Below, in pieces: positions 52,578 through 56,196 of a stretch of 64,000 bases of DNA. This stretch comes from Arcobacteraceae bacterium (GTDB taxonomy: Bacteria; Campylobacterota; Campylobacteria; Campylobacterales; Arcobacteraceae). The notes below the pieces were generated by a model. It was not told where the DNA came from. It saw only the letters and a list, made by a program, of their open reading frames with translations, and did no database searches. Both the position numbers and the translations under genes were made by a program. How positions within the stretch are numbered: position 1 is the first letter of the stretch; each line of letters opens with the position of its first letter. The stretch covers positions 1-64,000 of the forward strand of contig JAGLOP010000010.1 of NCBI GenBank assembly GCA_023138835.1, read 5' to 3'.

Positions 52578-53144
52578 TTATTTTTTGTCTTTAATATAAT
52601 CCAACTTAGATATATCCAAAAATTCATTATTTTTAAGGGAAATATTATTTGTAGGAATTGTAACTAAAATATAATTTGAATTTTGACCTATCCAAGAGTT
52701 ATAAAAGTTTTCTTTAGTTACTAGATACTTACCATTGTTTGGGTCTAGTAATAAAACAAAATCTCCTTTAATATTTTGAGCCACTACAAAATGAGGATAA
52801 TCTTTTTTTCTCAAAATTCTAGCAATCACAGGTATAGTAAGTTGTTCAAATATCTCCTTAGTGATTTTATAACCTTTAGCTTTAAAATTATGTTTTGAAG
52901 CAATAGTTTGTAGGTCTAAAAAGTTAATCATATCTGTAGTATTTAAATCTTTAATAATATCTTTTTCTGTTGTATCTAAACCATACATATTAAATAAAGA
53001 TGATATAGCACTAGCACCACAACTTTCTTCAAAAGACTGCTGTGTTACATCTTGATATTTTATCTCTTTAAGTGATTTAACTTTGAAAAATTGTGCATTT
53101 AAAAAAGAGGTAACTAATAATAAGCTAACTAAAATTTGTGCCAT
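52578..53144 (-). CDS. Secreted C39-like (double-glycine type) cysteine peptidase
   Basis: Signal peptide MAQILVSLLLVTSFLNA; QQSFEESCGASAISSLFNMYG (Gln/Cys), YPHFVVAQNIKGDFVLLLDPNNG (His/Asp). Confidence 0.85.
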   Translation of the reverse strand: MAQILVSLLLVTSFLNAQFFKVKSLKEIKYQDVTQQSFEESCGASAISSLFNMYGLDTTEKDIIKDLNTTDMINFLDLQTIASKHNFKAKGYKITKEIFEQLTIPVIARILRKKDYPHFVVAQNIKGDFVLLLDPNNGKYLVTKENFYNSWIGQNSNYILVTIPTNNISLKNNEFLDISKLDYIKDKK

Positions 53145-53980
53145 AATGAGAATGATACCGTACTATCAGGAGTATTTGCACTTGTACCCATCTTTGAATT
53201 AAATGTAAAAGCATTTTTTTCATTAAGATTATATGTCACACCAAATCCTATACTTGATAATATAGTACTATCATTTACAGTTGCACCATCCTCTTCCATC
53301 TTTGTTTGATATGTTTCTTCAAAGCCAAAATTTAAAGATACTTTAGGATTTAAAATTAAGGATAAGTCCAATCCTAAAGTATAACTATCTGGTAGTTTTA
53401 TATTTTTGGTATCTATTGTTCTTTTAAGATTTTGAGTAGTTGAGATAAATATAGTAGATACTAAAGGGTCACTATAATTTTTAAGTGCATATTTTAAATT
53501 ATAACTTTTTAAACTATGTCGTTCTTTTTTAGTTTGGTATGTGGTACTTTGTCCCAATGATGTTTGAAATGTAATATTTGGTTTAAACTCTCCGCCAATA
53601 GTATCTAAGTCATATTTGAACCCTACCCATAAACTATCAAATGAATTACTAGTTTGACTATAGTTACTAGATTGCCCTGCATAAGTTATTCTATCATTTA
53701 TATAGCTACCGCTAAATAATAAATCTATTTTAGAATTATATCCATAAAGTATAGTTTGATTTAATACAGTTTTTCTAGTTTCAGTTACATTTGACCCATC
53801 ATCAAAACTTGACATAGTTGGATATGTATCAAAACTACGAGTATTGTTTGATGTTAAAATATCTAAACTTGTAATAGACCTAATTCCATTATTCTTTTTA
53901 AAGATACTATCTATTGTGATTGCATCTGAAGCATATACTGAATATGCACCTAAAAGTGTTGTTAATATTATTTTTTTCAA
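53129..53980 (-). CDS. Predicted outer-membrane beta-barrel protein
   Basis: Signal peptide MKKIILTTLLGAYSVYA; alternating amphipathic strands; C-terminal ...TVSFSLWHKF; overlaps C39 gene by 16 nt. Confidence 0.75.
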   Translation of the reverse strand: MKKIILTTLLGAYSVYASDAITIDSIFKKNNGIRSITSLDILTSNNTRSFDTYPTMSSFDDGSNVTETRKTVLNQTILYGYNSKIDLLFSGSYINDRITYAGQSSNYSQTSNSFDSLWVGFKYDLDTIGGEFKPNITFQTSLGQSTTYQTKKERHSLKSYNLKYALKNYSDPLVSTIFISTTQNLKRTIDTKNIKLPDSYTLGLDLSLILNPKVSLNFGFEETYQTKMEEDGATVNDSTILSSIGFGVTYNLNEKNAFTFNSKMGTSANTPDSTVSFSLWHKF

Positions 53981-54000
53981 TTATTTACCTTTTTTTGATT

Positions 54001-54987
54001 TTAAATATGTATGTTTACAGTAGTTTGTTTTTTATTATATTCTTTTAAATCTACAATATGTTCAAGATTTTCATGTGTATATATTTGTTCTAATTCTTTA
54101 GCATCAAAATCAGGATTTATATCAAGTTTGTTCATTAAATTTAACATTATTTTATCTTGTTCAGCTTTATCTTTTTGCATAAATATATCTAATATAAATC
54201 TAAGTACATGATCAAAACTGCTAGTATCTAGTTCAGATGGTATAGTAGTAATTCCAAATTCTTCTAAATGTCTTAAAACTACATTTTTATAATTTTTATC
54301 TGCTTTTGTACTATAAGCTTCTTCCAAAGTCATCTGCCCATCAAAGTTTTTATCTACTTGTAATGTGGTATTTAATTCATCATCTAATGATGTTGCTATG
54401 TCAAATTCTCGATAATTTCTATAATAACCTATTTCTTTTAAATATGCTTTCTCAGATAATGCATAGGTATTGTTTTCTATAATTTTTTCACCAGCAATTA
54501 ATAATTTTTCTTTACCTGTTGTATTTTCTGTTAATGCCATACCTTCTATACCAAAGTCATTATATGTTTTATCATATTCCTCTTCTGTTAAAATACCATC
54601 ACTATTTTTATCTGCATACAAAAAATCTCTTTTATATGCAATATCAGCAAACCAGCCAGATACAAAAGCTTCTGCTTTATTTGTTAATCTTAAAGTGCTA
54701 TCATTATTTTTGATAATATTATCTTCTCCAAATTGAGATTTTAATTTATCCAAAGTCTCTTTTTCCAAAGATACTATAGCAAACTTCTTAGTTACCGGGT
54801 CTGTAAATATTGTAGGTGTTGAATTTTCTGACTTCGTTGTAGTATGATAGACTATATTTTCTACTGTATTAGTTTCTTTTACAGTATCATCAAATGATAC
54901 TTTTTTATCACTTATCTCTTGCGTGGTTTTATTTGTAGCCTTCACATCATAAGATGCAAAGGCTACTCCATGTGTTGATATATACAT
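54001..54987 (-). CDS. EF-hand-like protein without obvious Sec signal
   Basis: Two canonical 12-residue loops: DKNSDGILTEEE and DKNFDGQMTLEE. Confidence 0.75.
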   Translation of the reverse strand: MYISTHGVAFASYDVKATNKTTQEISDKKVSFDDTVKETNTVENIVYHTTTKSENSTPTIFTDPVTKKFAIVSLEKETLDKLKSQFGEDNIIKNNDSTLRLTNKAEAFVSGWFADIAYKRDFLYADKNSDGILTEEEYDKTYNDFGIEGMALTENTTGKEKLLIAGEKIIENNTYALSEKAYLKEIGYYRNYREFDIATSLDDELNTTLQVDKNFDGQMTLEEAYSTKADKNYKNVVLRHLEEFGITTIPSELDTSSFDHVLRFILDIFMQKDKAEQDKIMLNLMNKLDINPDFDAKELEQIYTHENLEHIVDLKEYNKKQTTVNIHI

Positions 54988-54989
54988 TT

Positions 54990-55322
54990 TTATCTATAAT
55001 AGAATCTACTAGTAGATCTATTATATCTCAGCCCTCTTTTATTTGCAGAGCTAAATATTTTATCTGCAAAACTCATTTTTGATTTATATTTTGGTTTTGG
55101 TGTTGGATATAAATATCTTCGAATTTTATTAATACGAGATGCCCAATATCCACGAATATACCATCCTCCATCAGCCTTAACCATATCATCTTTATTCATC
55201 TCTAAACTAGTCCCGACAGATTTACCTGCTGTAGCTAAATTTAGTAAATCATCTTTAGCAACTGTATTTGCCATAATTATACCACTACTTAACAGTAGTC
55301 CTAAAAGTAATTTTCTCATCAC
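54990..55322 (-). CDS. Small cationic secreted protein with Sec signal and double-glycine-like motif
   Basis: MMRKLLLGLLLSSGIIMANTVA signal; EMNKDDMVKADGG followed by a basic, aromatic-rich 57-aa tail. Confidence 0.7.
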   Translation of the reverse strand: MMRKLLLGLLLSSGIIMANTVAKDDLLNLATAGKSVGTSLEMNKDDMVKADGGWYIRGYWASRINKIRRYLYPTPKPKYKSKMSFADKIFSSANKRGLRYNRSTSRFYYR

Positions 55323-55434
55323 TTCAATCCTTTTTTTTAATTAGAATTACAAAAGTTTTGTCGACATCATTTTTATAAAACAAAAAAACTATATCATAAA
55401 AAAAAACTTTTGTATTGTAAAAAAATGACTTTTC

Positions 55435-56196
55435 TTAAATTCTATATATACTTGGATTTACTGCAAATATTTTTTTAAATGTTTTAGAAAAATGACTTTG
55501 TTCATAAAATCCAACCTCATTTGCTATATCTGATAAATCTAAATCTTTATTCTCAATTAACATCTTTTTTGCTTTATTTATTTTTTGATTGATTATAAAT
55601 GCATGTATAGTAAGTCCAAATATATTTTTAAATACTCTGTTGATATAAGCACTATTGTAACCTGTATAAGTTGATACATCATTTATTGATAGATTTTTAT
55701 CAAGATTATCAGTGATATATATTTTTATTATATTTGCAAGTTTATTGTGTTGTTCATTATTTTTATCTCGATAGTTTATATTACAGTATTTTATAAATAT
55801 ATTGGTAATAAATTCAGCTAAATGTTTTTCATAACTTTTTACTTTTGTTTCATTTATTATTTGTTTAAAAAGTGATCTAAAATTGTTATATATTTTTTGT
55901 TCCTTGAGAATATTTATATTTACAGGGATAAAGTCAGTATCATTTCCAAATATTTTATTTTGTATAGATTTACACCAATCAATGTTAAGGTAAATTACAT
56001 AATAGTTTGAAGCTTCTCCATCACCAGTATTTTTAGAACAATGTACCGTATCAGGATTAAATATAGCAAGTTGATTTTGTGAAAGTATTTCTGACGGACA
56101 TGAATTAAAATCTATATTTATTGTACCAGACTCAATAATAGCAATACCTAACATACAATGAGAGTGTTTTGAATAATTTGGGAATAACTTTTTCAT
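55435..56196 (-). CDS. AraC-family transcriptional regulator
   Basis: AraC-type HTH: LSINDVSTYTGYNSAYINRVFKNIFGLTIHAFIINQKINKAKKML...LSDIANEVGFYEQSHFSKTFKKIFAVNPSIYR. Confidence 0.92.
   Translation of the reverse strand: MKKLFPNYSKHSHCMLGIAIIESGTINIDFNSCPSEILSQNQLAIFNPDTVHCSKNTGDGEASNYYVIYLNIDWCKSIQNKIFGNDTDFIPVNINILKEQKIYNNFRSLFKQIINETKVKSYEKHLAEFITNIFIKYCNINYRDKNNEQHNKLANIIKIYITDNLDKNLSINDVSTYTGYNSAYINRVFKNIFGLTIHAFIINQKINKAKKMLIENKDLDLSDIANEVGFYEQSHFSKTFKKIFAVNPSIYRI

What the first reader, a model, noticed from the sequence alone, without database searches (positions are those of the whole stretch)
52578..56196. Candidate undescribed export/processing operon: cationic secreted peptide, EF-hand protein, OM barrel, periplasmic C39 peptidase, AraC regulator
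Seen: four minus-strand genes with 2 nt and 20 nt gaps and a 16-nt overlap, preceded by a co-oriented AraC-type gene. Order of transcription is small secreted cationic protein, leaderless EF-hand protein, Sec-signalled barrel-like protein ending in Phe, Sec-signalled C39-like peptidase. Known: C39 peptidases are usually fused to ABC exporters and cleave after GG. A free periplasmic C39-like protein next to an OM barrel occurs in the Pseudomonas Fap amyloid system (FapD/FapF). Inference: the peptide crosses the inner membrane by Sec, is matured by the C39 enzyme in the periplasm and leaves through the barrel. No ABC exporter or HlyD-like gene is nearby.
Basis: partly seen in the sequence, partly recalled or inferred. 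Interest (0 to 1): 0.78.

Follow-up and report, generated by a model that had tools for sequence, protein, structure and literature searches.

The report
Sec-exported double-glycine peptide secretion operon
In an Arcobacter-like bacterium, four linked genes appear to make a small secreted peptide, trim its leader in the periplasm and pass it through an outer-membrane pore; relatives across Campylobacter-type bacteria reuse the same leader on dozens of different peptides, which makes a poorly understood secretion route testable.

Summary
The window lies in an Arcobacteraceae-type MAG. This bipartite leader is a family: 53 distinct ends among 77 precursors in Campylobacterales. It is about 52% identical between members, whereas the cores are near-random. 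It co-occurs with a stand-alone periplasmic C39 gene (25 of 27 leader-positive genomes; 12 of 14 after removing seed genomes). The barrel is a confident 12-strand model whose best PDB matches are all FapF. So the inferred route is Sec, then periplasmic C39 cleavage, then a FapF-like pore. Peptide genes come as cassettes with a cognate leaderless companion: the EF-hand family here, elsewhere the Cj0814 family of flagellum-dependent secreted proteins. Complete modules sit on Campylobacter plasmids, one only 7.3 kb. It is not Fap itself. The closest described system is the gonococcal nap island (2025), so this is a new variant of a known kind. New here: the explicit Sec-plus-GG leader family, polymorphic cassettes and the companion. 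Peptide activity, companion role and all cleavage are unproven.

The parts
55435..56196 (-). AraC-type regulator, co-oriented, 112 nt upstream; local, not conserved with the module
   Evidence: Pfam HTH_18 1.3e-19, AraC_binding 9.7e-6; no relative in the other loci
55348..55414 (.). Perfect 12-nt inverted repeat TACAAAAGTTTT/AAAACTTTTGTA (55348-55359, 55403-55414) over a promoter-like TTTACA-17-TATGAT (55421-55393, - strand); possible operator
   Evidence: such a repeat arises in about 3.6% of Markov-1 sequences of this composition, promoter matches are not above chance; suggestive only
54990..55322 (-). Precursor peptide, 109 aa from ATG 55319 (110 from GTG 55322)
   Evidence: leader profile E=1.4e-18
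55269..55319 (-). Sec-type signal MRKLLLGLLLSSGIIMA (aa 1-17; cleavage after A17 predicted by eye)
   Evidence: sequence; same layout in 16 aligned leaders
55164..55268 (-). Propeptide (aa 18-52) NTVAKDDLLNLATAGKSVGTSLEMNKDDMVKADGG, C39-type leader ending GG
54993..55163 (-). Predicted mature core, 57 aa, net charge +15, rich in R, Y, S, K
54001..54987 (-). Leaderless EF-hand companion, 328 aa, two EF loops
54577..54612 (-). EF loop 1 (aa 126-137)
54319..54354 (-). EF loop 2 (aa 212-223)
53129..53980 (-). Outer-membrane beta-barrel, FapF-like fold, 12 strands, C-terminal Phe
   Evidence: AlphaFold pLDDT 87.2; Foldseek top 18 all FapF, E 2.6e-14, TM 0.74; profile vs PDB only FapF, 4e-4
52578..53144 (-). 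Stand-alone C39 cysteine peptidase with Sec-type signal; Q36, C42, H118, D134 invariant
53129..53144 (-). 16-nt overlap of barrel stop and C39 start, conserved in 31 of 39 loci

Best explanation
The four-gene unit is a dedicated two-step secretion and maturation system for a small bacteriocin-like peptide. (1) The Sec signal takes the precursor across the inner membrane [inferred from sequence]. (2) In the periplasm the stand-alone C39 peptidase reads the propeptide and cuts after GG52, freeing a 57-aa cationic core [predicted from leader and catalytic residues; not shown]. (3) The core leaves through the FapF-like 12-strand barrel [inferred from fold and by analogy with Fap and nap]. (4) The EF-hand companion is the cognate partner of the peptide, not of the machinery: leader, peptidase and barrel are constant, while core-plus-companion cassettes are exchanged and multiplied [shown as an evolutionary pattern]. 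The core most likely acts on bacterial envelopes (competitor killing or, as for nap, self-lysis). The companion most likely protects from, accompanies or modulates it. Both roles are inference. Approximate probabilities: secretion route 0.85, bacteriocin-like activity 0.5, companion as immunity/antidote 0.3, companion as flagellum-exported partner 0.3.
For: Leader family: 53 distinct leader ends, hydrophobic at -12 (100%), -4 (89%), -15 (87%), -7 (72%), E at -8 in 45 of 53, GG at -2/-1; 5 of 16 weakly match NCBIfam bacteriocin_sig. Co-occurrence with the C39: 25 of 27 leader-positive genomes, Fisher 1.5e-22; 11 of 11 genera, p=1.2e-6; 12 of 14 without seed genomes, p=3e-11. Leader conserved, cores not: mean identity 52% vs 25% (22% shuffled). 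Up to 16 leaders per genome. Barrel = FapF fold. C39 catalytic residues invariant, nearest solved relatives PCAT and ComA peptidase domains. Cassette partner: 57 of 77 peptides have a co-directional companion downstream; core and companion similarity correlate r=0.69, partial 0.64 given the leader, permutation p<=0.0005. Complete modules on closed plasmids.
Against: No cleavage, secretion or activity has been measured. No small membrane immunity protein lies next to this lineage's peptides (1 of 77), unlike typical bacteriocins. The window's own core has no relative outside its leader; its closest companions go with unalignable cores. In the window leader -15 is Ser and -4 Ala, a weaker fit than in most relatives. 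Several loci carry a broken barrel gene next to an intact C39, so the barrel may not always be needed. Companion families also occur in genomes without leader or C39, so they have a role beyond the peptide.
Confidence: 0.72

Rival explanations
1. It is a Fap-like fibre or adhesin system: the Tyr/Asn/Ser-rich cores polymerise on the surface, and C39 and barrel serve fibre export.
For: Barrel is FapF-like; weak FapD (76 bits) and FapF (22 bits) matches; cores are rich in Y (10.5%), N (9.5%), S (8.5%).
Against: Fap equivalog cut-offs missed by far; no FapB/FapC-like repeat protein in the operon; cores are short and hypervariable, unlike a conserved fibre subunit; Fap substrates lack a canonical C39 leader (PMC5557850), which is present here.
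Confidence: 0.2
2. Dual-route secretion: the peptide leaves by Sec/C39/barrel and the leaderless companion by the flagellar type III apparatus; the two act together outside the cell.
For: Thirty companions form the cluster whose two members scanned (L083, L141) match NF046095 'Cj0814 family flagellar-dependent secreted protein' far over cut-off; CJM1_0791/CJJ81176_0835 was absent or strongly reduced in supernatants of flgG mutants (PMC5223770; its identity with Cj0814 is my inference); all 27 leader-positive genomes have FlhA against 22 of 29 other C39-positive genomes, p=0.007, own genome included.
Against: The window's EF-hand companion is not in the Cj0814 family (no NCBIfam hit; no profile relation); no flagellar promoter signature upstream of the peptides; the flagella contrast is confounded by phylogeny.
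Confidence: 0.3
3. The companion is a cytoplasmic immunity or antidote protein for its cognate core, and the system is a competitive bacteriocin.
For: Core and companion families co-diversify; cassettes lie on mobilizable and conjugative plasmids; orphan companions exist without peptides, as is common for immunity genes; related modules in Acinetobacter and Vibrio plasmids carry glycine-zipper peptides with a small multi-membrane-span protein in the immunity position.
Against: Companions are large (300-500 aa), soluble and, in the Cj0814 family, reported outside the cell; in the window's own companion family the companion is conserved while the core changes.
Confidence: 0.3
4. The barrel is an uptake channel (COG4313/FadL-like) and the C39 protein only a binding or chaperone domain; the gene cluster has no secretion role.
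For: COG4313 channel 4rl8 is the next structural match; weak Phenol_MetA_deg match.
Against: FapF is clearly closer (2.6e-14 vs 2.7e-9); catalytic residues are invariant; the linkage to GG-leader peptides is not explained.
Confidence: 0.06

Closest known systems
Neisseria gonorrhoeae nap island (NapA/B/C, NapP, NapF; PMC11798529, 2025)
   Same: Short cationic GG peptides, a stand-alone C39 peptidase and a FapF-like channel in one locus; cleavage in the periplasm proposed there too.
   Different: Nap peptides have 16-36 aa cores, a LagC-like NapI and a holin-like NapH, which the authors suggest for inner-membrane transfer; a Sec signal is not mentioned. Here there is a Sec signal plus a ~35-aa propeptide, no NapI/NapH-like gene, and a large leaderless companion. 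Nap sequences were not compared here.
Pseudomonas Fap (FapD, FapF; PMC5557850, PMC6173800)
   Same: Periplasmic C39 protease and 12-strand FapF fold; colocalised FapD/FapF homologues in five further phyla were already noted.
   Different: No fibre subunits; C39 and barrel far below the Fap equivalog cut-offs; no coiled-coil domain in front of the barrel; substrates here carry a canonical C39 leader, Fap substrates do not.
Acinetobacter Fil ('putative pilus') locus with C39 FilB
   Same: Weak FilB match of the C39; the protein upstream of the C39 in A. baumannii has MDDAALSAATGQ behind a signal, the same spacing pattern (my reading).
   Different: Larger pilus-type genes, no small peptide/companion cassette.
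Class II microcins with PCAT/T1SS export (colicin V, MccPDI)
   Same: GG leader cut by a C39 domain, cationic variable cores, plasmid location.
   Different: The C39 here is not fused to an ABC exporter, has its own Sec signal, and no ABC exporter is in the operon.
Cj0814 family flagellar-dependent secreted proteins (NF046095)
   Same: Occupy the companion position in many relatives.
   Different: The window companion is a different, EF-hand family.

Membership tests
Fap system | FapD equivalog score (cut-off 330 bits) | tested here: not met
   76.3 bits
Fap system | FapF equivalog score (cut-off 700 bits) | tested here: not met
   22.2 bits
Fap system | FapF-type 12-strand barrel fold | tested here: met
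   12 strands; Foldseek TM 0.74
Fap system | N-terminal coiled-coil domain of FapF | tested here: not met
   signal plus about 13 residues before strand 1
Fap system | Fibre subunits FapB/FapC with amyloid repeats | tested here: not met
   no Fap match for peptide or companion
nap-type C39/FapF-like peptide system | GG peptide, stand-alone C39 and FapF-like channel in one locus | tested here: met
nap-type C39/FapF-like peptide system | NapI-like immunity and NapH holin-like genes | tested here: not met
   none in the operon; small multi-span ORF near 1 of 77 peptides. The paper says these genes are not always present in Neisseria either
nap-type C39/FapF-like peptide system | Sequence homology to NapP/NapF/Naps | not tested
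   gonococcal sequences were deliberately not fetched
C39 double-glycine leader peptides | GG at -2/-1 with hydrophobic -4, -7, -12, -15 and acidic -8 | tested here: met
   for the family; in the window -4 A, -7 M, -8 D, -12 M fit, -15 S does not
C39 peptidases | Gln, Cys, His, Asp catalytic set | tested here: met
   Q36, C42, H118, D134 invariant
Sec-exported precursor | Signal peptide cleaved by signal peptidase | not testable with these tools
   n/h/c regions visible by eye; no SignalP run
Class II microcin T1SS | C39 domain fused to ABC exporter | tested here: not met
   188-aa stand-alone protein, no ABC gene in the operon; the wider window was not scanned for ABC exporters
Cj0814 flagellar-dependent secreted family | NF046095 score over cut-off | tested here: not met
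   no hit for the window companion; HHalign probability 0.1%; family absent from G000
EF-hand proteins | Canonical 12-residue EF loops | tested here: met
   two loops; Pfam score below cut-off
Bacteriocin | Kills or inhibits bacteria, with immunity | not testable with these tools
   needs assay

The most novel reading that the evidence does not exclude
A polymorphic two-substrate secretion strategy of Campylobacterota: interchangeable cassettes each encode a Sec/C39/FapF-like-barrel peptide and a cognate protein exported by the flagellar type III apparatus, which meet outside the cell.
Probability: 0.25. Interest if true: 0.85.

Novelty: new variant of a known kind. Interest (0 to 1): 0.62.

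Why it matters
[quoted passage not shown] Here the operon carries its own substrate with a readable Sec-plus-GG leader, and dozens of natural variants share the leader with different cores, so both questions become directly testable. It also points to an unnoticed repertoire of secreted, strain-variable peptides, all annotated 'hypothetical' in the plasmid records read here, on Campylobacter chromosomes and plasmids.

Tried and rejected
AraC as part of the module: rejected, not found elsewhere. EF-hand companion as a remote Cj0814 relative: no support. Companion structure: too poor to interpret as a whole (pLDDT 56.8), so no fold search. Phase variation of the barrel: the split barrel genes have no homopolymer tract, so decay or assembly error. 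Sigma-54/sigma-28 promoters upstream of peptides: sigma-28 not enriched; a loose GG-N10-GC match is 15% vs 6% shuffled, while the stricter sigma-54 pattern gives none. A shared companion C-terminal motif: 16 of 57 vs 11 of 465 background, enriched but too loose to use. PHROGs: nothing useful. 'HmcD domain' label on some plasmid barrels: no NCBIfam model supports it, and haemocin papers found gave nothing. A dummy accession look-up failed. Gonococcal nap sequences were not fetched. The co-occurrence test is partly circular because 13 genomes supplied the leader seeds; it was therefore repeated without them. The flagella contrast is phylogenetically confounded. The plasmid collections and the paper library are incomplete, so absence of prior description is not proof.
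Full report
Observation. All five genes are present at the stated places with the stated spacing. The C39 protein matches PF03412 (8.8e-24), the regulator AraC/HTH_18, the third protein carries two canonical EF loops, and the peptide has no family match. The precursor may start at ATG 55319, eight bases behind AAGGA, as well as at GTG 55322.

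The missed feature. Read after the Sec-type signal, the peptide is NTVAKDDLLNLATAGKSVGTSLEMNKDDMVKADGG^WYIRGYWASR...: a double-glycine propeptide followed by a 57-aa core of net charge +15.

A leader family. A search of 400 genomes of the order with the FapD model found C39 genes in 54. Their surroundings are full of small precursors of the same build. Sixteen were aligned (A1) and the profile was searched over the same 400 genomes. At E<=1e-4, 27 genomes have leaders and 25 of these have the C39 (Fisher 1.5e-22; 11 of 11 genera, p=1.2e-6). Since 13 genomes supplied seeds, the test was repeated without them: 12 of 14, p=3e-11. The exceptions are G045 and G385. Genomes hold up to 16 leaders with 1-7 C39 genes; the window's genome has one of each.

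Leader against core. Among 77 distinct precursors the last 30 leader residues average 52% identity, the cores 25% against 22% for shuffled cores; 61 of 67 cores analysed are positively charged or neutral-to-positive, 60 of them above zero. Leader ends keep GG, an acidic residue at -8 and hydrophobic residues at -4, -7, -12 and -15, which is the C39 leader rule as I know it (own knowledge). Two other lineages next to stand-alone C39 genes in the order keep the same register with TEGE/TEGQ or ISAQ at the end; these lists were assembled by hand.

Peptidase and barrel. Q36, C42, H118 and D134 are invariant in 16 relatives; the nearest solved structures are PCAT and ComA peptidase domains. The barrel model (28 sequences, pLDDT 87.2, 12 strands) has FapF as its first 18 PDB matches (2.6e-14, TM 0.74, 15-18% identity), then the COG4313 channel; by sequence profile only FapF is found. 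Barrel and C39 genes share the same 16-nt overlap in 31 of 39 pairs. In several loci the barrel is broken, without homopolymer tracts.

Cassettes and companions. 57 of 77 peptides are followed by a co-directional leaderless companion. Companion families differ, but core and companion similarities go together (r=0.69; 0.64 given leader similarity; p<=0.0005), with the window's own EF-hand family as the exception, where companions are alike and cores are not. The largest companion cluster has 30 members; the two scanned are Cj0814 family proteins by NCBIfam. A protein reported as CJM1_0791/CJJ81176_0835 depends on the flagellum for its presence in supernatants (PMC5223770; I infer it is Cj0814 from the family name and locus numbering; the authors also discuss an indirect effect). 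The EF-hand family occurs in 24 of 27 leader-positive genomes, but also in 27 without leaders. FlhA is present in the window's genome and in all 27 leader-positive genomes. There is no small membrane immunity-like gene beside this lineage's peptides (1 of 77).

Mobility and range. Named relatives are Arcobacteraceae, Sulfurimonas, Sulfurospirillum, Sulfuricurvum, Campylobacter and Helicobacter. Closed plasmids carry the module: C. jejuni pTHJ059_1, C. coli pC3-24, the 7.3-kb C. jejuni p4549-2, C. volucris p9726 and C. concisus pCCON16. In the sister genome G001 the frdA-thiL interval holds another gene and the operon lies on another contig, so it is accessory at this site; its G+C is 24-27% against 30-36% in the frdA-side flank.

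Comparison with the known. It is not Fap: equivalog scores fail (76 of 330, 22 of 700 bits), there are no fibre genes and no coiled-coil domain. The Fap authors state that FapD's target is unclear and that Fap proteins lack canonical C39 sequences, and colocalised fapD/fapF homologues in five further phyla were noted. The nearest described system is the gonococcal nap island, whose peptides did not kill competitors but promote autolysis. I therefore call this a new variant of that kind. Its new elements are the Sec-plus-GG leader family, the cassette polymorphism and the cognate leaderless companion.

What is shown and what is inferred. Shown by sequence: gene order, leader family, co-occurrence, invariant catalytic residues, FapF-like model, core-companion correlation. 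Inferred: Sec export, cleavage after GG52, export by the barrel, antibacterial or autolytic activity, companion role.

Noticed in passing
L244 404-2033, L248 1067-5121: Acinetobacter plasmids pTR11_4 and p12SAAs470 carry barrel, Sec peptides ending ELSRQEMKDTQGA^ (or similar) with glycine-rich cores, and C39; in pTR11_4 an unannotated 108-aa multi-span ORF (1043-1369) sits in the immunity position.
   Followed up: partly
L252 3388-5504: Vibrio coralliilyticus plasmid: barrel, glycine-zipper peptide behind EMTPEEAEGTEGK, 107-aa multi-span protein and a C39 protein, in one row: a bacteriocin-like layout.
   Followed up: partly
L249 4748-6750: In the A. baumannii Fil-type locus the secreted protein before the C39 gene has MDDAALSAATGQ behind its signal, the same -4/-7/-12 spacing; it may be the FilB substrate motif.
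   Followed up: no
L038, L040, L042, L043: A third lineage near C39 plus FapF-like barrels: 125-137 aa and 520-890 aa Sec proteins both with [IV]SAQG shortly after the signal, suggesting large substrates under the same leader rule.
   Followed up: partly
L178, L183, L190, L211, L223, L224, L228, L232: Barrel gene split by frameshift or stop beside an intact C39 in a notable share of loci, without homopolymer tracts.
   Followed up: partly
window 53129-53980 and relatives L002, L003, L005, L006: The barrel gene starts with TTG in the window and in four relatives.
   Followed up: no
L176 / G001:C67: The 2.9-kb contig of the sister genome starts and ends inside EF-hand genes, with a second peptide after the C39; repeats of the cassette probably break assemblies.
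   Followed up: partly
G045, G385: Two genomes with leader precursors but no C39 match at the threshold.
   Followed up: no
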